Positions 28,557 through 47,743 of a stretch of DNA of 64,000 bases are shown one piece after another. Position 1 is the first letter of the stretch; every line of letters begins with the position of its first letter. The notes under the pieces were generated by a model that worked only from the letters and a program-made list of their open reading frames with translations, was not told the origin of the DNA and ran no database searches. The position numbers and the translations under genes are program-made. This stretch comes from Streptomyces diacarni (GTDB lineage: Bacteria > Actinomycetota > Actinomycetes > Streptomycetales > Streptomycetaceae), in the NCBI RefSeq assembly GCF_003323715.1, contig NZ_QOIN01000047.1:62001-126000 (forward strand). Reading direction: 5' to 3'.

Positions 28557-28574
28557 CTGAGTACGCGTACTCAG
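28557..28574. promoter_or_regulatory. Perfect 18-bp palindrome upstream of the small membrane-protein gene
   Basis: CTGAGTACGCGTACTCAG is a perfect dyad in the gap after pccE, 34 nt before the next start codon. A one-mismatch relative (TGAGTGCGCGTACTCA) is found upstream of the ketosynthase gene of the 39-45 kb operon, at nearly the same distance from its start. Likely a transcription-factor site. Confidence 0.65.
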
Positions 28575-28608
28575 GCGGGGGCGCCCGCCCGGTCCCACCA
28601 TGGGGCGC

Positions 28609-28746
28609 ATGCTGTGGTCGGACCCCCGCGACGAGCCGCCGCCGGAACTGCGCAGGGCCCAGGAGAAGGTGCACCGTCTCGGCTGGGTGCTGCTGGTGGT
28701 GGTGGCGGTCGTGATGCTGCTGCTGTTGTCGGTGGCGTACTCGTGA
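28609..28746 (+). CDS. Small single-pass membrane protein, MmpB-like
   Basis: A 45-aa protein. A hydrophilic N-terminus ([20 protein letters not shown]) leads into one transmembrane helix ([21 protein letters not shown]). The MLWSDP..EPP.ELR pattern recalls, from memory, the small morphogenic membrane protein MmpB of Streptomyces; I am not certain of that match. An ATG three codons upstream is an alternative start. Codon usage shows normal third-position GC bias. It lies between pccE and maf, downstream of the 18-bp palindrome. Confidence 0.7.
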
Positions 28747-38474: not shown

Positions 38475-39362
38475 ATGTGGCACGGCGATCAGCTGGACCT
38501 CGACGCCTACCTGGCGCGGCTGGGGTACGCGGGGCGGCGCACCCCCACCCTGGGCACGCTGCGCGCGCTGCACCGGGCCCATGTGCTGACGGTGCGCTGG
38601 GGCAACCTGGACTGCCTGCTGCACGGCGATGTCCCGCTCGACCTGGGCACCGTCCAGGACAAGCTGGTGCGCCGCGGCCAGGGCGGCTACTGCTTCGAGC
38701 ACACCGTGCTCTACGCGGCGGCACTGGAGCGGCTCGGGTTCACCTTCACCGCCGTCTCGGGCCGCCCCCGCATGGGCGCGGACAGGATCCGCCCCGCGAC
38801 GCACGCGATGGTGCTGGTCACCGTCGAGGGGCGCCGCTGGCTGAGCGACATCGGTTTCGGCACCAGCCCACTGGATGTCATCGAACTGGTGGACGGCAAC
38901 GAGCCGGCCATCGAGGGGCGCAGGTTCTGGCTGCGGCACACCGAGGTCACCCCGGGAGCCGAGGGCTGGATGCTGCACCAACAAGACGCCGACGGCGGCT
39001 GGATGGCGCGCCACACCTTCACCGAGAACCCGCAGTACCCGGCCGACTTCGCGCTCGGCAACCACTTCATCGCCACCAGCTCCCACTCCCCCTTCAACCG
39101 CCGCCCCTTCCTCCAGCGGGTACGCCCCGACCGCACCGACCAGCTCGACGGCCTCACCTGGACGACCACCGCCGCCACCGGCCTGGCCCCCGAAGAGGAA
39201 CGCACCGTCGAACCCTCCGAGCTGCCCGAGCTGTTCGCCGGCCCCTTCGGCATCGACCTGTCCGAGGAGGACGCCCGGCTGCTGGTCGACCACGTCGAAC
39301 GGGGCACACACGGCGCACACGGCCGACGGCCCGCGGGCCCCGGACGAGGGCGCGTCCGCTAG
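38475..39362 (+). CDS. nat: Arylamine N-acetyltransferase
   Basis: A 295-aa acetyl-CoA-dependent N-acetyltransferase with the Cys-His-Asp triad in RGQGGYCFEHT (Cys about 76), ATHAMVLV (His about 114) and WLSDIGFG (Asp about 129). It acetylates arylamines or acts like amide synthases in secondary metabolism. GGAGGAG lies about 10 nt before the ATG; an open frame continues upstream without similarity. The last 40 residues after the conserved domain are low complexity. Its stop overlaps the stop of the convergent epimerase gene by 4 nt. Confidence 0.92.
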   Translation: MWHGDQLDLDAYLARLGYAGRRTPTLGTLRALHRAHVLTVRWGNLDCLLHGDVPLDLGTVQDKLVRRGQGGYCFEHTVLYAAALERLGFTFTAVSGRPRMGADRIRPATHAMVLVTVEGRRWLSDIGFGTSPLDVIELVDGNEPAIEGRRFWLRHTEVTPGAEGWMLHQQDADGGWMARHTFTENPQYPADFALGNHFIATSSHSPFNRRPFLQRVRPDRTDQLDGLTWTTTAATGLAPEEERTVEPSELPELFAGPFGIDLSEEDARLLVDHVERGTHGAHGRRPAGPGRGRVR

Positions 39363-40288
39363 CCGGCCCGAGGACGGTCCTGGCCGAGATCTTGGGCGTA
39401 GTCGGTCAGGGTGCGCTGGGCCGTCCAGCCCTGGCGGCGGGCCCTGGTGACGTCCAGGACGACGCCGCGCGCCAACTGTGCGACGGCGTAGCGGGTCAGC
39501 GGCGGCTCGGCGAGGGGACGCCGCCGCGCCAGCCGCTCGGCGGCCGTCGCCGCCGCGCGGGCGAACGCCGCCGGAAGGTGCCCCACACGGGCGTGCACCC
39601 CGTGGGCGGCCAGGACCGTGCGGACCGCCTCGTCCCTGCTGTAGGGGACCGGGTCCGCGATGTTGTAGGCGCCCGCCGGCCAACCGGCGGCGGCCAGGCA
39701 GGCGTCGGCCAGGTTCTCCACAGCCGTCAGGCTCAGCTGCACGTCGCGGCCGGGCAGCAGCAACAGGCCGCGCCGCACGCGCCCCAGCAGCCGCGGCACC
39801 AGGTGCGGGTCCCCCACGCCGTACACCGCGCGGGGCCGCAGCACCACCGCACCGGCGGACAGCGCCAGCGCCTCGCCTTCCGCCTTCGTGCGCCCGTAGG
39901 CGTTCAGCTGGGCGCCCACCGGGTGCTCTTCCCGCAGCCGCGCCCGCTCAGGTCCCGGAGCGTAGACGCTGGCGCTGCTCACCCACACCAGGGGCCGGTC
40001 TGCCGCGGCCCGGAGCAGGGCCGCCGTCCCCGCGACGTTGACGGCGCGCATCGCCGCCTCGCGCGGCGAGCCCGGCACGGGGTCGCCCACGGCGGCCGCG
40101 CAGTGCACCACCGTGTCGGCCCCGCCCAGGTCCGGGGGGCGGCCCAGCGCCGCGTCCCAGTGGACGTGACGGCCGACGGGCCCGGGGCGCCGGCCCACGC
40201 ACACCACCTCGGCGCCCTGTGCGGCCGCGGCCCTGGCGACGTGGCTGCCGCAGAAGCCGCTCGCTCCGGTGACGGCGATCGTGGTCAC
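39359..40288 (-). CDS. NAD-dependent epimerase/3beta-HSD-family dehydrogenase, OleD-like
   Basis: A 309-aa extended short-chain dehydrogenase with Rossmann motif VTGASGFCGSHVA at the N-terminus, VVHCAAAVGD, VSSASVYAPG (Ser about 114) and the catalytic YGRTK motif (Tyr about 132, Lys about 136). This 3beta-HSD/epimerase class includes OleD and NltD, which reduce a 2-alkyl-3-ketoacid to the beta-hydroxy acid in olefin and beta-lactone synthesis. It is the last gene of a five-gene coupled operon; its start overlaps the P450 stop in ATGA. A sugar epimerase role remains possible because a glycosyltransferase is in the operon. Confidence 0.82.
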   Translation of the reverse strand: MTTIAVTGASGFCGSHVARAAAAQGAEVVCVGRRPGPVGRHVHWDAALGRPPDLGGADTVVHCAAAVGDPVPGSPREAAMRAVNVAGTAALLRAAADRPLVWVSSASVYAPGPERARLREEHPVGAQLNAYGRTKAEGEALALSAGAVVLRPRAVYGVGDPHLVPRLLGRVRRGLLLLPGRDVQLSLTAVENLADACLAAAGWPAGAYNIADPVPYSRDEAVRTVLAAHGVHARVGHLPAAFARAAATAAERLARRRPLAEPPLTRYAVAQLARGVVLDVTRARRQGWTAQRTLTDYAQDLGQDRPRAG

Positions 40289-41694
40289 GGTTCCTCCCCT
40301 GTCAGGCGGGTGGTGCGGTGCTCAGACGGCGGCCCCCAGCCGTGCCCCGGCGGCCCCGGGGCGTACTGCGACGCCGTGCCGCGCCTCCCCTCGGGCACCG
40401 TGCCGCGTCTCCCTCCGGGCGTGGTGCCGGTGCGCGGGTCCGCGCGGACGGTGAGCGTGCGCCAGGCGGGGAGGGCCGCTCGGCGGTCGGTGCGGGCGCG
40501 GACGACGGCGGGGCGGTACGGGGCCAGTGCGGCCAGCAGGTCGGCGAGCTGTGCCCGCGCCAGCCGCGCCCCCGGGCACGCGTGCGGGCCCGCCCCGAAG
40601 ACGAGGTGCGCCACGGCGGCCGGGGCCGGAGCGGCGCCGCACGGCGCGTCGCGGTGGGCGCGGACCGCGTGCCGCGCCACCAGGACCAGCCGGTCGCCGC
40701 CCCGTACCGGGCGGCCCCCCAGCGTCCCCGGCGCTGCCGCCACCCGCGGCAGCAGCGGCGAGGGCGCCGTCACCCGCAGCAGTTCGCCGACGAGCGCGTC
40801 CCGCGTGCGCCGGTCACCGGCCTGCTCCCACAGCCCGGCGTCCGCGCACCAGGCGGCGGCCCTGGGCAGCGCGGCGACCGTCGTGGTGACGGCGGCGACC
40901 GCCACCATGGCGCGCAGCCCGTCGCCGGTGCGCCCGTGCGGCTCGGAAGGGTCCGCCGCGCACCGGCCGGACCCCGCGGTGCCCGGCGGACCGGGCAGTG
41001 CGCGGTCCTGTGCCAGCAGGGTCTCCAGCCGTGCGGTGGCGCGGGCGGCGGCCCGTGCCGCGCCGGGGCGGCGGGGACCCGGCAGGTGGTCGCGGACGGT
41101 GGCTGCCGCCGCTTCGGCCGCGGCCCGCGCGAGCGCCCCCGGCGCGGCGGCGACGCCCAGCAGCGCGCACACCGTGGCTCCCGCCAGCTCGTGGGCCAAC
41201 GTGGCGAGGTCGGTCTCGCCGCCGGTCGCGAGCGGGGCGAGGTGGCGGGCGATGACCCGCTGCCACACCGGGCGCAGCCGTTCCACGCCCGCGGAGCCGA
41301 GGTCGTCGGCGAGGGTGCGCCGGGTGCCTCTGTGCCCGTTGCCCTCCTGGTCGAAGAGTGCGCCTTCGCCCGCGTGTGCGCGTACGGCGCCGCCCGTCGT
41401 CCCGGCAGCCGTGCGGTCCAGCGGCAGCCGGGTGAGGGCGTGGCGGTAGGCGTCCGCGTCGTGCACCAGCACGGTGCGGCCCAGCCGGACGACGGGGCGG
41501 CGGCGGGCGGCGGCGAGCAGGGCGAACAGCAGCGGGTGCGCGTGGCTGTAGACCCGCCGGTCCCGGCGCCGCGCTGCCCGCACGCCGGATGGCCGGGCGG
41601 CCCTGGCCGGTGTGCCGGGGCGGGGCCTGGTGCGCCGCGAGGGGGCGGGGGTGGTCGCGTGTGTGCCTGGCACCGTGGTCTGCCGCCGCCTCAT
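40285..41694 (-). CDS. Cytochrome P450
   Basis: A 469-aa P450. The heme-binding FGAGPHACPGARLARAQL (Cys about 373) and the ExxR motif (GELLRVT) are present. The I-helix region reads VAVAAVTTTVAALP, so the usual AG-acid-T oxygen-activation motif is altered and lacks the acidic residue, an oddity that could mean unusual chemistry. About 45 basic low-complexity residues precede the domain and about 50 follow it. No ferredoxin gene is adjacent. The start and stop overlap its neighbours by 4 nt each, so it is translated with the operon. Confidence 0.87.
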   Translation of the reverse strand: MRRRQTTVPGTHATTPAPSRRTRPRPGTPARAARPSGVRAARRRDRRVYSHAHPLLFALLAAARRRPVVRLGRTVLVHDADAYRHALTRLPLDRTAAGTTGGAVRAHAGEGALFDQEGNGHRGTRRTLADDLGSAGVERLRPVWQRVIARHLAPLATGGETDLATLAHELAGATVCALLGVAAAPGALARAAAEAAAATVRDHLPGPRRPGAARAAARATARLETLLAQDRALPGPPGTAGSGRCAADPSEPHGRTGDGLRAMVAVAAVTTTVAALPRAAAWCADAGLWEQAGDRRTRDALVGELLRVTAPSPLLPRVAAAPGTLGGRPVRGGDRLVLVARHAVRAHRDAPCGAAPAPAAVAHLVFGAGPHACPGARLARAQLADLLAALAPYRPAVVRARTDRRAALPAWRTLTVRADPRTGTTPGGRRGTVPEGRRGTASQYAPGPPGHGWGPPSEHRTTRLTGEEP

Positions 41695-43184
41695 CGGGTG
41701 GCCGGCCGGCGGTGGCGCCCCGCGGCCAGCAGCGCGGTCGCCGCACGGTCGGGTTTGCGTGACCGTCCGCTCAGGGGGATGTCGGCGAGCAGCACGCCGT
41801 CGGGGCGGGCCGCGCCCATGCGCCGCAGGGGCTCCCGCAGCGCGGCACGCAGCAGCCGGCGGTCGGCGCCGGGGCTGGGCTGGATGACGGCGACGAGCTG
41901 TTCGTCCCCGTTCCCCACCGGAACCCCCACGAGCAGCGCGAGATCGACACCGGGCACGTGGAGCGCGGGCTCGTACAGCCCCGGGTAGATGTTCTCCGCG
42001 CGCCGCAACACCATGTCCTTCACGCGTCCTTCGAGGACGAGTCGGCCCCGGCCGTCCAGGTGGGCGCGGTCGCCGGTGGCCACCCACGGGTCGGGATCCT
42101 CGCCGAGGTAGCGGTGGCGGGCGCCGGGCCCGGACAGGAAGAGTTCGCCCGTCGGTCCCGTCTCGGCCGTGACGCCGGGCAGCGGAGCGCCCAGCAGGTC
42201 GCCGTCCCCCTCGTACGCCGCCTTGTCGGCCGCTTCGACGGCGGCCGCGGGGAAGAGTTCGGTGAGCGCGTACACGCCCCAGGCCTCGGATGCTCCGGCC
42301 TCCTTCACGCGGCCGAGCAGCGCGGCGCCCGCCGGCGCCGAGCCGGTCCACACCCGCCCGGTGAAGCGGGCGTCCGCCGCGAGGGCGGCCCGCAGCTGCG
42401 GCGGCGTCAGGTAGGTGGCCTGCGGGCGCAGCCGGCGCAACTGCCGGGCCAGCAGGCGGGGCCGGCGGGCCGGCAGGGCGACGGGGGCGCCCGCGGCCAG
42501 GGACGGTACGAGCACGAAGAACGTTCCGCCGAGTACGGGGCTGCCCGCCGACGGGCGCACCAGGTCGGTGACCGTCGCCATCCCGGCGGCCAGGGACGCG
42601 CGGGAGTGGACGACGGCGCGGGGCCGGGAGGTGGTGCCCGAGGTGAAGACGATGACCGCGTCCGCGTCCGCGTCGACGGCGTGGTCCACCGCACGGCGCG
42701 GCGCGGCGAGTGAGCCGGTCTCCAGCGCGGGCGCGCACCGGGGCAGCCGGGGCCCGATCGTGGCGAGCGGGCCGCCCAGCCCGGCGAGGTCGGGCAGGGC
42801 GAGGTGGGCGCGGCGGGCCAGCGGGCCGGCCCATCCTGCGACGGCCTGCGCGGTGGCGTCCGCGAGCACGAGGTCGGGGCGGGCGAGGGCGAGGCGGGCG
42901 CGGAGCACGTCGGGTCCGGCACCGGGGTCGAGCACGGCGGCGCGCAGCCCCAGCCGCCAGGCGGCCAGCAGCACGGCGAGGGCGCGCGGTCCCGGCCGGA
43001 TGGCGACCCCGAGGGTGGCGCCGGGGCCCAGGCCCCTGCGGTGGAGGGCGGCGGCGTAGCGGTCGGCCAGGCCGGTCAGGTCGCCGCGGGTGGCGCGGAC
43101 GCGGACGCCGCCCGCGAGGGTGGTGCCCAGCAGCGCAGGCAGGTGCGGGTCGCGGCGCAGCGCGGTGGCAAGGGTGTCCAGCAT
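41691..43184 (-). CDS. AMP-forming acyl ligase, OleC-like
   Basis: A 497-aa ANL-superfamily enzyme with the ATP loop IVFTSGTTSRPRAVVHSR near residue 180, WGVYALTELFP, ATGDRAHLDGRGRLVLEGRVKDMV and the late Lys in LSGRSRKPDRAA. Such enzymes adenylate carboxylates; the OleC subgroup instead activates a beta-hydroxy acid and closes a beta-lactone. The combination with an OleA-type ketosynthase and an OleD-type dehydrogenase favours that role, but sequence alone cannot exclude an acyl-CoA ligase. Its ATG overlaps the glycosyltransferase stop by one base (TGATG). Confidence 0.82.
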   Translation of the reverse strand: MLDTLATALRRDPHLPALLGTTLAGGVRVRATRGDLTGLADRYAAALHRRGLGPGATLGVAIRPGPRALAVLLAAWRLGLRAAVLDPGAGPDVLRARLALARPDLVLADATAQAVAGWAGPLARRAHLALPDLAGLGGPLATIGPRLPRCAPALETGSLAAPRRAVDHAVDADADAVIVFTSGTTSRPRAVVHSRASLAAGMATVTDLVRPSAGSPVLGGTFFVLVPSLAAGAPVALPARRPRLLARQLRRLRPQATYLTPPQLRAALAADARFTGRVWTGSAPAGAALLGRVKEAGASEAWGVYALTELFPAAAVEAADKAAYEGDGDLLGAPLPGVTAETGPTGELFLSGPGARHRYLGEDPDPWVATGDRAHLDGRGRLVLEGRVKDMVLRRAENIYPGLYEPALHVPGVDLALLVGVPVGNGDEQLVAVIQPSPGADRRLLRAALREPLRRMGAARPDGVLLADIPLSGRSRKPDRAATALLAAGRHRRPATR

Positions 43185-43984
43185 CAGCGCGGGTCCTCTC
43201 CGTGTCGCCCGGGGCCTTTGCCGAGGTACCAGCGGGCGGTGCCGAGCAGTCCGTAGGCGCGCAGCCGCCGGGTCGAGTTGCCGACGACCATGCGGCGCTC
43301 GCGGGTGATGGCGGTGGTGTGGCGGCGCACCCGGTTGAGGAAGAGCCGGTCGGTGGGCGAGGGGCGCCGCGGCGCGCCGCCGACCTGCTGGTAGAGGTGC
43401 GCGGTGATCGCCATGTTGTTGCCCGCGTGCATCCGGTAGGGCGCCAGGTAGCCGTGGCGGCGCCGGTGCGCGGGCCTGATCCTGCCGAAGAGCGCGGCGA
43501 GGCCCACCAGGAGGCGGAAGGCGGCGCGGCCGAGGGGCCCGTGTTCGTCGGCGCGTGCGACGACGCGTCCGCACACCAGACCCGCGCCGCCGCCGAGCGC
43601 GGCGCGGGCGGCGGCCGCCCAGCCCGGGTGCGGGAGGCAGTCGGCGTCGGTGCGGGCCAGCGCGGCGGCACCGTGTGCGAGGGCGTACCGGAAGCCGGTG
43701 TCCACGGCGCTTCCAACGCCCTTCTCCGGTTCGGTGACGACGTGCACGGGGAACGGCGCCCGCTTCGCGAACCCGCGGGCGAGGCAGGCCGTGTCGTCGG
43801 TGGAGGCGTTGTCGACGACGACGAGGGTGAAGTCCGTGTCGGTCTGTGCGGCGAGCGCGTCGAGGGTGCCCGGCAGTCGTGCGGCTTCCTGGTGGGCCGG
43901 GACCACGACCCACAGAGGGTGGGCCGCCGGGGCCGGCGCGGTGCCCTGTGCCGCGGCTGCGGGCGCGGCTGCTGTCCGTGTCAC
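43184..43984 (-). CDS. Family-2 glycosyltransferase
   Basis: A 266-aa GT-A fold enzyme without clear transmembrane segments. It has the N-terminal WVVVPAHQEAARLPGTLDAL, the VVDNASTDDT nucleotide-sugar site near residue 56, EKGVGSAVDTGF, and the metal-binding ARTDADCLPHPGW (DAD) near residue 112. The acceptor base region is less clear. It may attach a sugar to the product of the ketosynthase pathway. The GTG start overlaps the ketosynthase stop in GTGA, giving strict coupling. Confidence 0.85.
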   Translation of the reverse strand: MTRTAAAPAAAAQGTAPAPAAHPLWVVVPAHQEAARLPGTLDALAAQTDTDFTLVVVDNASTDDTACLARGFAKRAPFPVHVVTEPEKGVGSAVDTGFRYALAHGAAALARTDADCLPHPGWAAAARAALGGGAGLVCGRVVARADEHGPLGRAAFRLLVGLAALFGRIRPAHRRRHGYLAPYRMHAGNNMAITAHLYQQVGGAPRRPSPTDRLFLNRVRRHTTAITRERRMVVGNSTRRLRAYGLLGTARWYLGKGPGRHGEDPR

Positions 43985-45018
43985 GACTTCTCCCAGACCA
44001 TCGTCATGAGGCTGACGCCGCCGCCGAGCCCGACGAGCAGCACCCGGTCGCCGGGGTCGAGTTGGTCGTGCACCCGGTCGAGCTGGATGCCGAGGGTGGC
44101 GCTCGCGACGTTGCCGAGTTCGGGCACGGTCACCACCAGCCGGTCCCACGGCACGCCGGTCAGTTCGGCGAACCGCTCCAGGTAGGGGACCGTCACCTGG
44201 TGGACGAGGACGTGCCGGAAGTCGTGCCAGCCGAGGCCGGTGCGGTGGCGCACCCGGTCCAGCACGCAGGTGCCGACCTTCTCGAACACCTCCCGCAGCG
44301 CGGCGCCGTCGCCGTGGAAGTAGGTGTGCGCGTCACCGCGCGGATGCCGCGATCCGCCGCCGGCTATGCCACCGACCGCCCAGTGCTCCGAGTGGGTCTC
44401 GGTGTCGACGTCGAGGATGCCGCCGGCCGCGACGGGCTCCAGCACCACGGCCGCGCCCGCGTCGCCGAAGGTGTAGCCGGCGAACGCGTCGCGGAACTGG
44501 CCGAGGTCGGCCGGGTCGTGGCGCACCGCCCGGCTCGGGGTCTCCCCCGTGACGACCAGCGCCCGGTGGGCCCGTCCCGCCAGCAGCATGGCGCGGGCCA
44601 GGTCGATGCCGCCGACGAAGCTGTTGCAGGCGTTGGTCACGTCCAGCGCGTGCGCCCGGGAGCCGAGCGCGTCCTGCACGATGTGCGCGGTGGCGGGTTC
44701 GGCCACGTCCCGGGTGGCGGAGGCGAACAGGAGCAGGTCGATGTCGAGCGGGTCGAGTCCGGCCCGGTCGAGCGCGGTGCGTGCGGCCCGGGTGGCGAGT
44801 GTGGAGGCGTACTCGTCCTCGGCGGCGATACGCCGGGTCTCGATGCCGGTGACCCGCTCGAACATCCGCTCGGGAAGCGCGAGCCCGCTGTGCGCGGCGA
44901 CGGTGCGCCGCAGCTGTCCGGAGTCCACGACCCGCTCCGGCAGCGCGGCGGCGACCCCGGTGATCCCCGCCCGCGGCAGGCCGGGCGCCGCGTCCTCGCC
45001 GGTGCTGTGTATGCCCAT
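43981..45018 (-). CDS. Ketoacyl synthase III-type thiolase, OleA-like
   Basis: A 345-aa FabH/OleA-fold condensing enzyme with catalytic Cys131 (DVTNACNSFVGGIDLA), His273 (VLVHQVT) and Asn303 (PELGNVAS). The stretch TRDVAEPATAHIV places Glu107 where OleA, as I remember it, has its signature Glu (LEPSTASIV). OleA joins two fatty acyl-CoAs head to head. There is no ribosome-binding site; a TAGCCT hexamer ends 7 nt before the ATG, so the operon mRNA is probably leaderless. A TGAGTGCGCGTACTCA dyad lies 36 nt upstream. First gene of the operon. Confidence 0.85.
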   Translation of the reverse strand: MGIHSTGEDAAPGLPRAGITGVAAALPERVVDSGQLRRTVAAHSGLALPERMFERVTGIETRRIAAEDEYASTLATRAARTALDRAGLDPLDIDLLLFASATRDVAEPATAHIVQDALGSRAHALDVTNACNSFVGGIDLARAMLLAGRAHRALVVTGETPSRAVRHDPADLGQFRDAFAGYTFGDAGAAVVLEPVAAGGILDVDTETHSEHWAVGGIAGGGSRHPRGDAHTYFHGDGAALREVFEKVGTCVLDRVRHRTGLGWHDFRHVLVHQVTVPYLERFAELTGVPWDRLVVTVPELGNVASATLGIQLDRVHDQLDPGDRVLLVGLGGGVSLMTMVWEKS

Positions 45019-45054: not shown

Positions 45055-45070
45055 TGAGTGCGCGTACTCA
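45055..45070. promoter_or_regulatory. Near-perfect 16-bp palindrome upstream of the ketosynthase operon
   Basis: TGAGTGCGCGTACTCA has one mismatched pair. It is related to the perfect dyad upstream of the 45-aa membrane-protein gene and is placed about the same distance from the start codon. If the operon is leaderless, it lies just upstream of the -35 position. The remaining 299-nt gap to the EACC1-like gene shows no gene. Confidence 0.6.
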
Positions 45071-45317: not shown

Positions 45318-45707
45318 ATGACCGCTGGGTTGGAACTGGCGTTTGAGCCGGGTAGTGACACCTTCGCTCTGCACGATCAGCCGTGGCGCGACCAGGTTGC
45401 GGACCTTCATGCGACCCTGCGCGAGGAGGTGGGGGCGGTCGTCCGGCGCGGTGTGCCCGCGCCGGGGCAGAAGGGCGCTGTCGACACGACGGTGCTCGCG
45501 TTGGGTTCTTCGGGAGCGGTGACGGCCGCAGTGGCGTGCTTCCGAGCCTGGCTGAACCGGGACAAGACCAGAACGCTGACCGTGGCCTGGACCGATGACT
45601 CGGGAGCCGAGCAACGCCTGCGGGTCACCGGCGACAATATCGACCAAGCGTCCTTCCAGGCTCTCACCGAGGCTCTTGGCAGCCGGTGCGGGGGCGACGG
45701 CCGATGA
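45318..45707 (+). CDS. EACC1-like (effector-associated constant component) protein
   Basis: A 129-aa protein with the pattern of Effector-Associated Constant Component 1: a beta-strand start, the ADLHATLREEVGAVVRRGVPAPGQKGA region, VLALGSSGAVTAAVACFRAWL and RTLTVAWTDDSGAEQRLRVTGDN. These small proteins accompany variable effector genes in actinobacterial NTPase/caspase conflict systems, from memory of comparative-genomics work; their biochemical job is unknown. GGGGGGAGAAGG precedes the ATG. The stop overlaps the caspase start (ATGA), so the pair is translationally coupled. Confidence 0.8.
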   Translation: MTAGLELAFEPGSDTFALHDQPWRDQVADLHATLREEVGAVVRRGVPAPGQKGAVDTTVLALGSSGAVTAAVACFRAWLNRDKTRTLTVAWTDDSGAEQRLRVTGDNIDQASFQALTEALGSRCGGDGR

Positions 45708-47743
45708 CGGAGAGCCGGCGCTACCGGGGGTTGCTGATCGGCAATGCCGACTACCCTCGCGACCCCCACGCTCTGCCTGCCCTCGAAGGCCCGCTGACCG
45801 ACATCGTGGAACTGCGCAACGCGCTCGCGGATGAGCAGGCCGGGCTGTTCGACTCCGCCGACCTCGAGGTGTTGCCCGACTACGGCATCCACGACCTGAG
45901 GGAGCGGGTCGACGAGCTTTTCACCACCGCGACCCGTGGGGACGTGCTGCTGCTGTACTACAGCGGCCACGGCCAACTCGACGAACGCGGCACCCTCTAC
46001 CTGTGCGCCAGGGACACCAGAACGGCCGCACTGCGCGCCACCGCACTGAGCGCGATCGAGATCAACAACATCCTCGACGGCTCACCGGCGACCAGCATCC
46101 TCATCGTCCTCGACTGCTGCTACAGCGGCGCCTTCAAGGGAGCCACCCCCACGACCCCGGTCGCGGGGAGAGGCCGCTACGTCCTCACCAGCAGCAGATC
46201 CACCCAACTCGCCCAGGCGGCCACCCGCCCGGGCCAACCCAGCCCGTTCACCCGGCAACTCGTCCGGGCCCTGCGCAGCGCACCGTCCAGTGCGGGTGCC
46301 GAACACCTGACCGTCGTCGAGATCTACCGGCAAGTGCACCACTGGATGACCGCCGACGCCGTCATCGCTCCGCAGTTGCGGTTCGCGGGCGAGGGCGACG
46401 TGGCCCTCGCCCGCCGCCCAGCCCCGCCTCCAGCCGCACCACCGCAGAGTGCCGAACCGCCCAGCGCACCGCTCACCCGCGCTCCCCCGCCCGAGAAGTC
46501 GCGCCCGTCGAGCGAACCGCTCGCCCGTACCGACACCCTGGTCGTGACCTTTCCCCCGGGCACCCGGCACTCGGGCACGCGGCAGCAGTCGGCCTCCGCG
46601 CAGAAGCCGGCCTCTCCTCGCGGTTCCGCCTCTCCGTCACGGTCGGCCGAGCGCAGGACCACCGGGGGCCGCGAGGGCCGAGACGCCCCGCCAGACGCAC
46701 AGGAGCCGGCCCGGAAACCGGTACCCCGGCGGGCAATCCTCGCCCTCGGGGGCGTTCTCGTGGTGGGCGGCGCGACCGCGGTAGCGCTGCTGCCGGGCAA
46801 CGACGGAGGGGAGTCCGGAGACGGAGCCACCAAGGAAACAGCGAGCCCTACCGCGAAGAAGGTCACCGTAAAAGCCGCGGGCACCCTCCACTGCCCGGAT
46901 AATGTCACCTCGGTGGCCTTCAGTCCGGACGGACCGACCGTGGCCACCAACGGCGGTTACGGAAACGCACGCCTGTGGAACATGGAGACGGAGAAGAACA
47001 CCCGTACCCTCACCAACCTCGGCAACGTCTTTTCCGTGGCGTTCAGTCCGGATGGCGAAATCCTGGCCACCGGCGGCGACAACCACAAAGCAGAGCTGTG
47101 GAACGCGAAAACGGGGAAACGCCTGCACACCCTCACAGGGCACAGCGATGCCGTCGCTTCCGTGGCGTTCAGCCCGCAGGGAAAAACCCTGGCCACCGGC
47201 GGTCATGACGGGGAGGTGCGGTTGTGGAACGTAGCGACGGGAAAGTCCGCCCACACCTTCCAGGGCCTGAGCAAGGGGGCTGTCTCGGTGGCCTTCAGCC
47301 CGGACGGCGGAACCCTGGCCATCGGCATCTGGGACGGCAGAGTGCTGCTGGCGAACCTGAAGGACAAACATTCCGTTGTTACTCTCAAAGGCCACACCGA
47401 CGCCGTCACCGCGGTGGACTTCAGCCCGGACGGTAAGACCCTGGCCACCGGCAGCTACGACAGCAGCGCGCGGCTATGGAACCTGGAAACGAGAAAGACC
47501 CTCCACACCTTCACCAACCGCGCCGATGCCGTCAGTTCGGTGGCCTTCAGTCCGGACAGCAAGCTCTTGGCCGCCGACGGCCATGGTGCTACCGCGCGGC
47601 TGTGGAACGTGGAAACAGGGAAGCCCGTCCAGGCCTTCACCAAGCACACCGCTCCCGTCAGGGCGGTGGCATTCCACCCGGACAGGAGAATCCTGGCCAC
47701 CGGCAGCGACGACAAGACGGTGCGGCTTTGGCGCGTGAGCTGA
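45704..47743 (+). CDS. Caspase-like protease with transmembrane segment and seven WD40 repeats
   Basis: A 679-aa protein. Residues 1-235 are a C14 caspase-like domain with His89 in YYSGHG and Cys139 in DCCYSG. A Pro/Ser-rich linker (about 236-343) leads to one transmembrane helix (about 344-363, AILALGGVLVVGGATAVALL). Residues 391-679 hold seven WD40 repeats with VAFSPDG and ATG.D..VRLWN signatures, enough to close a propeller. Topology therefore puts the protease and propeller on opposite sides of the membrane. With the EACC1-like gene it forms a two-gene unit that looks like a sensor-effector defence or cell-death module. Codon choice is slightly less GC-extreme than neighbours, consistent with transfer. 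Confidence 0.9.
   Translation: MTESRRYRGLLIGNADYPRDPHALPALEGPLTDIVELRNALADEQAGLFDSADLEVLPDYGIHDLRERVDELFTTATRGDVLLLYYSGHGQLDERGTLYLCARDTRTAALRATALSAIEINNILDGSPATSILIVLDCCYSGAFKGATPTTPVAGRGRYVLTSSRSTQLAQAATRPGQPSPFTRQLVRALRSAPSSAGAEHLTVVEIYRQVHHWMTADAVIAPQLRFAGEGDVALARRPAPPPAAPPQSAEPPSAPLTRAPPPEKSRPSSEPLARTDTLVVTFPPGTRHSGTRQQSASAQKPASPRGSASPSRSAERRTTGGREGRDAPPDAQEPARKPVPRRAILALGGVLVVGGATAVALLPGNDGGESGDGATKETASPTAKKVTVKAAGTLHCPDNVTSVAFSPDGPTVATNGGYGNARLWNMETEKNTRTLTNLGNVFSVAFSPDGEILATGGDNHKAELWNAKTGKRLHTLTGHSDAVASVAFSPQGKTLATGGHDGEVRLWNVATGKSAHTFQGLSKGAVSVAFSPDGGTLAIGIWDGRVLLANLKDKHSVVTLKGHTDAVTAVDFSPDGKTLATGSYDSSARLWNLETRKTLHTFTNRADAVSSVAFSPDSKLLAADGHGATARLWNVETGKPVQAFTKHTAPVRAVAFHPDRRILATGSDDKTVRLWRVS

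What the first reader, a model, noticed from the sequence alone, without database searches (positions are those of the whole stretch)
39359..45018. Five-gene coupled operon: OleA-like ketosynthase, glycosyltransferase, OleC-like ligase, P450 and OleD-like dehydrogenase
Seen: the five minus-strand genes overlap by 4, 1, 4 and 4 nt, so they are translated as one unit. The ketosynthase has a Cys-His-Asn triad and a Glu in an AEPATAHIV context like the OleA signature. Known: OleA, OleC and OleD (also NltA/C/D for nocardiolactone) make beta-lactones from two fatty acyl chains, and OleB, an alpha/beta hydrolase, decarboxylates them to olefins. No OleB is present here, while a P450 and a GT2 glycosyltransferase are inserted. 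Inference: the product may be a hydroxylated and glycosylated beta-lactone or long-chain lipid not described before.
Basis: partly seen in the sequence, partly recalled or inferred. Interest (0 to 1): 0.88.

Follow-up and report, generated by a model that had tools for sequence, protein, structure and literature searches.

The report
OleA-type lipid operon with MacR box
A five-gene bacterial operon that probably joins two fatty acids head to head and adds a sugar is real and widespread; the same gene order was published in 2020, but its ligase is not the expected beta-lactone enzyme, and its promoter carries a conserved site that looks like the binding site of a developmental regulator.

Summary
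Observation confirmed. Five minus-strand genes (45018-39359) overlap by 4, 1, 4 and 4 nt and occur in the same order in at least 67 other actinobacterial loci. The ketosynthase belongs to the OleA clade (100/100 split from FabH types) and carries the Glu-Pro signature; the dehydrogenase is OleD-like.

Three points change the reading. (1) This gene order, with the same predicted product (hydroxylated, glycosylated beta-lactone), was published for Actinoplanes atraurantiacus (PMC7064751), so the idea is not new. (2) The ligase is not an OleC: it forms its own clade, lacks the RHN(A/S)KI motif of the 16 OleC/NltC/LstC references, keeps a CoA-ligase-like A8 motif, and scores no better on an OleC profile than ordinary ligases. 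The P450 lacks the I-helix acid in all 59 orthologs. A beta-lactone end product is therefore unproven. (3) New: a palindrome, TGAGTAC-N2-GTACTCA, lies 50-52 nt before most ketosynthase starts. The genome has only three such sites; the other two precede mmpB and an SCO4225-family membrane gene. I read it as the MacR box of the MacRS developmental system.

A quarter of the loci carry a second GT2; a sister cluster adds FAAL, ACP and a PurF copy. Product unknown.

The parts
45055..45070 (.). Promoter palindrome TGAGTACGCGCACTCA (read on the minus strand), putative MacR box, about 52 nt before the KS start
   Evidence: 67 of 80 orthologous promoters have it with at most 2 mismatches against 1 of 1518 control windows; three sites in the whole genome
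45026..45031 (-). TAGCCT, -10-like hexamer 7 nt before the KS ATG (would give a leaderless transcript)
   Evidence: TANNNT 6-7 nt before ATG in 31 of 72 promoters; consensus match only, not shown experimentally
43981..45018 (-). OleA-type ketosynthase (thiolase superfamily), 345 aa, Glu-Pro signature and Cys-His-Asn
43184..43984 (-). Soluble GT2 glycosyltransferase, 266 aa, DAD motif and invariant TDR
41691..43184 (-). Adenylate-forming ligase of its own clade, 497 aa; not an OleC by motifs
40285..41694 (-). Cytochrome P450, 469 aa; heme Cys and ExxR present, I-helix acid absent (AVTTT; AVNTT in most orthologs)
39359..40288 (-). OleD-like extended short-chain dehydrogenase, 309 aa, TGASGFCG and YGRTK
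28558..28573 (.). Perfect copy of the same palindrome before mmpB (second site of the putative regulon, outside the operon)
28600..28746 (+). mmpB, 48-aa morphogenic membrane protein, reference target of the palindrome
   Evidence: NF047320 67.7 bits, cut-off 34

Best explanation
The operon makes a glycosylated, branched (2-alkyl-3-hydroxy) acyl product by an OleA-type route and is switched by a developmental regulator. Shown by sequence: an OleA-clade ketosynthase, an OleD-like reductase, a distinct adenylate-forming ligase, a P450 and a GT2, translationally coupled and kept together in several families; a conserved palindrome at fixed distance before the first gene. Inferred: KS joins two acyl thioesters without decarboxylation to a beta-keto acid; the dehydrogenase reduces it to a beta-hydroxy acid; the ligase adenylates the carboxylate, and either closes a beta-lactone or passes the acyl group to a thiol or other acceptor; the P450 oxidises a chain; GT2 adds a sugar (a second GT2 adds another in some strains). 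Transcription is controlled by MacR bound just upstream of the -35 region.
For: KS in the OleA clade (100/100 split from E. coli FabH and four own-genome KSIII) with Glu-Pro in every OleA type and in none of the five FabH types; profile match to X. campestris OleA structures. Dehydrogenase: best NCBIfam models are the two OleD models, and 161 bits on an OleD profile, second of the genome's dehydrogenases tested. Five-gene order in 67 named loci of Streptomycetaceae, Micromonosporaceae and Pseudonocardiaceae. The OleA of the same-order A. atraurantiacus cluster was expressed and active on p-nitrophenyl hexanoate (PMC7064751). Palindrome; neighbour genes mmpB and SCO4225 family; 12 of the sampled sites in other Streptomyces genomes lie before mmpB-like genes. 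MacRS is known to control morphogenic membrane protein genes through a defined consensus (PMC10345050, PMC9739842).
Against: No product is known. The ligase lacks OleC motifs, so the last step is open. The P450 lacks the I-helix acid, so plain hydroxylation is not assured. GT2 acceptor and donor are unknown, and GT2 enzymes usually act on sugars or polyprenyl phosphates. That the palindrome is the MacR box rests on target genes and my recollection of the published consensus; the primary paper is not held.
Confidence: 0.6

Rival explanations
1. The product is a hydroxylated, glycosylated beta-lactone: the ligase closes the beta-lactone as OleC does.
For: OleA-type KS and OleD-like reductase give the 2-alkyl-3-hydroxy acid that OleC uses; no OleB; the ligase clade is sister to the OleC clade at 99/96 or 80/96; the same prediction is published.
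Against: The 16 OleC/NltC/LstC references share a P.D.RH(N/A)(A/S)KI motif; the ligase has PLSGRSRKPDR and keeps the CoA-ligase-like GRVKDM..RAENIYP motif that OleC has lost. Its OleC-profile score of 114 bits lies within the range of ordinary ligases, 73-193.
Confidence: 0.35
2. The ligase is an acyl thioester ligase: it activates a dedicated acid for the KS or for release, and the product is a glycosylated beta-hydroxy or beta-keto lipid without a lactone.
For: CoA-ligase-type A8 and A3 features; best solved relatives are CoA ligases; the sister cluster carries a FAAL and an ACP, that is, thioester chemistry.
Against: The A10 region (SRKPDR) lacks the usual (S/T)GK motif; the sister cluster has the FAAL in addition to this ligase, so the ligase may do something else there; sisterhood with OleC.
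Confidence: 0.35
3. The ligase is an amide- or ester-bond synthetase joining the acyl adenylate to an amine or hydroxyl, for instance of the sugar.
For: The closest folds are the amide bond synthetases McbA (6sq8, 6h1b) and that of S. hindustanus (8pyy, 8ppp).
Against: Model of moderate confidence (pLDDT 73) and weak in the A8 region; all ANL enzymes look alike; identity only about 22%.
Confidence: 0.15
4. The KS is a FabH/KASIII priming enzyme and the operon feeds ordinary fatty acid or polyketide starter synthesis.
For: The best NCBIfam hit of the KS is beta-ketoacyl-ACP synthase 3 (168 bits), with PRK09258 second (158), both below cut-off.
Against: Tree and Glu-Pro signature place it with OleA.
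Confidence: 0.05

Closest known systems
Actinoplanes (Paractinoplanes) atraurantiacus oleA-GT-oleC-P450-oleD cluster (Smith et al. 2020, PMC7064751)
   Same: Same five gene types in the same order, no OleB; same predicted product; its OleA is active on p-nitrophenyl hexanoate
   Different: Product never identified; no note on ligase motifs, P450 I-helix, second GT2 or promoter in the sections read. Direct orthology not tested (genome not retrieved), but Paractinoplanes/Actinoplanes loci L100, L104, L105 and L108 carry orthologs of all five genes, and L110 of the first three before its contig ends
Lipstatin (lst) and nocardiolactone (nlt) clusters
   Same: OleA-type ketosynthase, adenylating ligase, OleD-type dehydrogenase, no OleB
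   Different: Those have a two-subunit OleA and true OleC-type ligases (LstC/NltC-like proteins inside the OleC clade); no P450-GT2 pair in this order
Olefin oleABCD / oleA-oleBC-oleD clusters
   Same: KS and dehydrogenase families, non-decarboxylative Claisen logic
   Different: No OleB here; ligase outside the OleC clade; added GT2 and P450
MacRS regulon of Streptomyces (mmp genes)
   Same: Palindrome at 42-52 nt before the start codon, as at mmpB in this genome
   Different: A biosynthetic operon of this kind as target is not reported in the papers read

Membership tests
OleA | Glu117 followed by Pro (PMC7064751) | tested here: met
   EP invariant in 81 orthologs; absent in E. coli FabH and four own-genome KSIII
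OleA | Cys-His-Asn triad | tested here: met
OleA | Groups with OleA from ole clusters rather than FabH | tested here: met
   100/100 split, though long branches are present; OleA profile 150 bits against 83-103 for FabH types
OleA | Non-decarboxylative condensation of two acyl-CoA | not testable with these tools
   Needs enzyme assay
OleC (beta-lactone synthetase) | Falls inside the OleC/NltC/LstC clade | tested here: not met
   Own clade 100/100 outside the OleC clade 100/99-100
OleC (beta-lactone synthetase) | A10 motif RHN(A/S)KI and the OleC-type A8 region | tested here: not met
   SRKPDR and GRVKDM..ENIYP, nearly invariant in 70 orthologs
OleC (beta-lactone synthetase) | Curated model score (PRK09274 cut-off 478; OlefBLtnSynXan 900) | tested here: not met
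   82 and 43 bits; other ligases of the genome reach 178 on PRK09274
OleC (beta-lactone synthetase) | Forms beta-lactone from 2-alkyl-3-hydroxy acid | not testable with these tools
   Needs enzyme assay
OleD | Best match to OleD among dehydrogenase families | tested here: met
   Top two NCBIfam hits are OleD models, though far under their cut-off of 580; 161 bits on an OleD profile
OleB | Alpha/beta hydrolase or OleBC fusion in the cluster | tested here: not met
   None in the operon or conserved beside it in 80 loci
Catalytic P450 monooxygenase | Heme Cys, ExxR and I-helix acid-alcohol pair | tested here: inconclusive
   Cys and ExxR invariant; Thr invariant; acid replaced by N, T, A or S in 59 of 59 orthologs; the sister cluster P450s have the acid
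MacR regulon | Palindrome TGAGTAC-N2-GTACTCA before the gene | tested here: met
   One mismatch at 45055-45070; conserved at fixed spacing. That this palindrome is the published MacR consensus is from memory
MacR regulon | MacR binds and controls the promoter | not testable with these tools
   Needs EMSA, ChIP or mutant

The most novel reading that the evidence does not exclude
A widespread actinobacterial operon makes a sugar-bearing head-to-head lipid that is not a beta-lactone, using a new ligase family and a P450 without the usual proton-relay acid, and does so under the MacRS developmental system, so that the lipid serves aerial growth or the cell envelope rather than being an ordinary antibiotic.
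Probability: 0.22. Interest if true: 0.75.

Novelty: new variant of a known kind. Interest (0 to 1): 0.5.

Why it matters
It corrects a published guess: the predicted beta-lactone rests on an OleC that is not there by its defining motifs. It also gives a handle on an orphan pathway found in many actinomycetes: a conserved promoter site that names a likely regulator, so the operon could be switched on by MacR and its product found. If MacR control holds, it would tie a lipid glycoside to Streptomyces development.

Tried and rejected
FabH assignment of the KS: rejected by tree and signature. P450-derived glycosyltransferase activator (TIGR04515, 37 bits, cut-off 343): rejected, since the heme Cys is invariant in the P450 and the partner is a GT2, not a GT1. 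A conserved transporter, regulator or resistance gene next to the operon: none found; no flanking family occurs in more than 9 loci. Literature for a product of this gene set: only Smith et al. 2020. Literature search for the palindrome itself found no paper stating it; the MacRS primary paper is not held. The -35 as part of the palindrome: rejected, spacing to the -10-like hexamer is too long. GT2 remnant in the window between ligase and P450: none found. Alignment failed on a row with a stop codon.
Full report
Check of the observation. The five genes are at the stated place and strand and overlap by 4, 1, 4 and 4 nt: ketosynthase (KS) 45018-43981, GT2 43984-43184, ligase 43184-41691, P450 41694-40285, dehydrogenase 40288-39359. 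The dehydrogenase ends in a 4-nt convergent overlap with an arylamine N-acetyltransferase gene on the plus strand that ends at 39362 (PF00797). The genome is a 7.66 Mb assembly whose relatives are Streptomyces.

Distribution. In 199 genomes of the genus (the own genome included), 18 carry a close ortholog of the ligase (73% identity or more) and 4 a diverged one at 41-44%. A scan of named genomes with the KS gave 80 loci in Streptomyces, Kitasatospora, Yinghuangia, Actinacidiphila, Micromonospora, Actinoplanes, Paractinoplanes, Winogradskya, Pseudosporangium and Saccharothrix. By tblastn, 67 of the 80 have all five genes in the same order; 12 others are cut by contig ends and L077 has a deletion (gene maps). 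One copy lies on a linear plasmid, pKVP2 of S. viridifaciens, with a KS identical to that of a Kitasatospora aureofaciens contig. No other gene is conserved beside the operon. So it is a patchy accessory operon, kept as a unit.

Prior description. Smith et al. 2020 (PMC7064751) report in Actinoplanes atraurantiacus the domains OleA, glycosyltransferase, OleC, P450, OleD, no OleB in the genome, and propose a hydroxylated, glycosylated beta-lactone. They found that OleA active on p-nitrophenyl hexanoate, 29% identical to X. campestris OleA, and give Glu117-Pro as the OleA signature. The species is now Paractinoplanes atraurantiacus. I could not retrieve its genome; orthologs of all five genes are in Paractinoplanes/Actinoplanes loci L100, L104, L105 and L108, and of the first three in L110, whose contig ends there.

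Ketosynthase. In a tree with OleA proteins from oleABCD and oleA-oleBC clusters, lipstatin-type and nocardiolactone-type proteins, E. coli FabH and four KSIII proteins of the same genome, the window KS sits with the OleA types on a 100/100 branch. Long branches are present, so the exact place among OleA types is less sure. All OleA types have Glu-Pro at the key place and none of the five FabH types do. Across 81 orthologs the Glu, Pro, Cys, His and Asn are invariant. A profile of the family aligns its EP with the EP of X. campestris OleA structures. It scores 150 bits on a profile of classical OleA against 83-103 for FabH types.

Dehydrogenase. The best NCBIfam models are the two OleD models, far under their cut-off. 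On a profile from 15 OleD references it scores 161 bits; one other dehydrogenase of the genome (L227) scores 210, the rest 18-120. OleD-like, not a strict member by the curated cut-off.

Ligase. In two trees it forms with its orthologs and the sister-cluster ligases a 100/100 clade outside the OleC/NltC/LstC clade, which is itself 100/99-100. It is sister to that clade with 99/96 support, or 80/96 with fifteen more ligases of the own genome. The 16 references have an A10 motif with RHN(A/S)KI (one RHASKI) and have lost the KD...N.YP part of A8; the window ligase has SRKPDR and GRVKDMVLRRAENIYPGLYEP, kept in 70 orthologs. On an OleC profile it scores 114 bits, ordinary ligases 73-193, true OleC 625-786; on PRK09274 it has 82 bits while other ligases of the genome reach 178. 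The closest solved sequences are CoA ligases, the closest folds amide bond synthetases (model pLDDT 73). Failing membership lowers 'it is an OleC', not 'it could act like one'.

P450. Heme cysteine and ExxR are invariant, but the I-helix acid is N in 49 of 59 orthologs and otherwise T, A or S, with the following Thr invariant. The sister-cluster P450s have the acid (TGTET). A changed proton relay is inferred; hydroxylation is possible but not assured.

Glycosyltransferases. The window GT2 has an invariant DAD and TDR and a confident GT-A fold (pLDDT 84); closest folds are WrtF fucosyltransferase and other sugar or lipid-phosphate transferases at 16-22% identity, which does not name donor or acceptor. 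Twenty loci hold a second GT2 between ligase and P450, about 52% identical to the first, with an ED base. It occurs in Streptomyces and Micromonosporaceae and is decayed in L035, L037, L039 and L052; L032 looks degenerate. So sugar decoration may vary between strains.

Promoter. Upstream of the KS most loci share a 16-bp palindrome, TGAGTAC-N2-GTACTCA. With at most 2 mismatches it is found in 67 of 80 promoters against 1 of 1518 control windows of the same loci. Its start is 50-52 nt before the ATG in 57 of 72 promoters and 43 nt in 9 more. In the window it is at 45055-45070 with one mismatch; shuffled windows give 0.34 matches on average for up to 3 mismatches. In the whole genome there are three sites with at most one mismatch and none for the reversed control. 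The other two precede mmpB at 28600 (NF047320, 67.7 bits against cut-off 34) and an SCO4225-family membrane gene on another contig. Perfect copies occur in 28 of 31 Streptomyces genomes, one to five each, and 12 of the sampled sites in other genomes (L176-L202) lie before mmpB-like genes. MacRS is known to control several morphogenic membrane protein genes through a validated consensus, to favour antibiotic production and to restrain differentiation (PMC10345050, PMC9739842). From memory the published consensus is this palindrome; the primary paper is not held. I therefore infer that the operon is a MacR target. Its place, centred about 44 nt before the ATG with a -10-like TAGCCT 7 nt before the ATG, would suit an activator on a leaderless transcript; this is inference.

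Sister cluster. Four Streptomyces genomes carry a larger cluster (L112-L115) with P450-KS-GT2-P450-ligase-dehydrogenase at about 45, 52, 40 and 43% identity to the window KS, GT2, ligase and dehydrogenase, preceded by FAAL, ACP and DUF6506, a second PurF (373-383 bits; the housekeeping PurF elsewhere has 513-520) and a 177-aa protein without a Pfam match. FAAL plus ACP suggests acyl-ACP feeding of the KS there. The PurF copy may be a resistant target copy or a pathway enzyme; not tested.

Verdict. The operon is real, widespread and OleA-type; the same order and the same product idea are published; the beta-lactone step is not supported by the ligase; the putative MacR site is the new element. 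Product unknown.

Noticed in passing
L112-L115 (Streptomyces genomes G191, G048, G157, G194): Sister cluster: KS-GT2-P450-ligase-dehydrogenase module inside a larger cluster with FAAL, ACP, DUF6506, a second P450 and a second PurF copy besides the housekeeping PurF. PurF is an Ntn amidotransferase, so the copy might be a self-resistance gene or a pathway enzyme.
   Followed up: partly
window 28558-28573 and 28600-28746: Perfect palindrome TGAGTACGCGTACTCA before mmpB, between an acyl-CoA carboxylase beta gene and maf; only three such sites in the genome.
   Followed up: yes
L033:11247-12023, L058:12541-13299, L095:11160-11894, L104:5333-6130 and 16 more loci: Second GT2 between ligase and P450, decayed in L035, L037, L039 and L052.
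   Followed up: partly
L111 (CP090842.1, pKVP2): The operon lies on a linear plasmid of S. viridifaciens with a KS identical to that of a Kitasatospora aureofaciens contig (L088), which points to movement between replicons or strains.
   Followed up: no
window 45318-47743: Next to the operon, on the plus strand, an EACC1 (effector-associated constant component) gene and a caspase-like protein with WD40 repeats, a candidate conflict system.
   Followed up: partly
L157, L158, L160, L164: OleA-OleC-OleD genes with an OleB-like hydrolase beside large modular polyketide synthase genes, a possible separate type of ole cluster.
   Followed up: no
L227 (G000:C33:224468): Another dehydrogenase of this genome scores higher on the OleD profile (210 bits) than the window one and lies near a KSIII and a very large open frame.
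   Followed up: no
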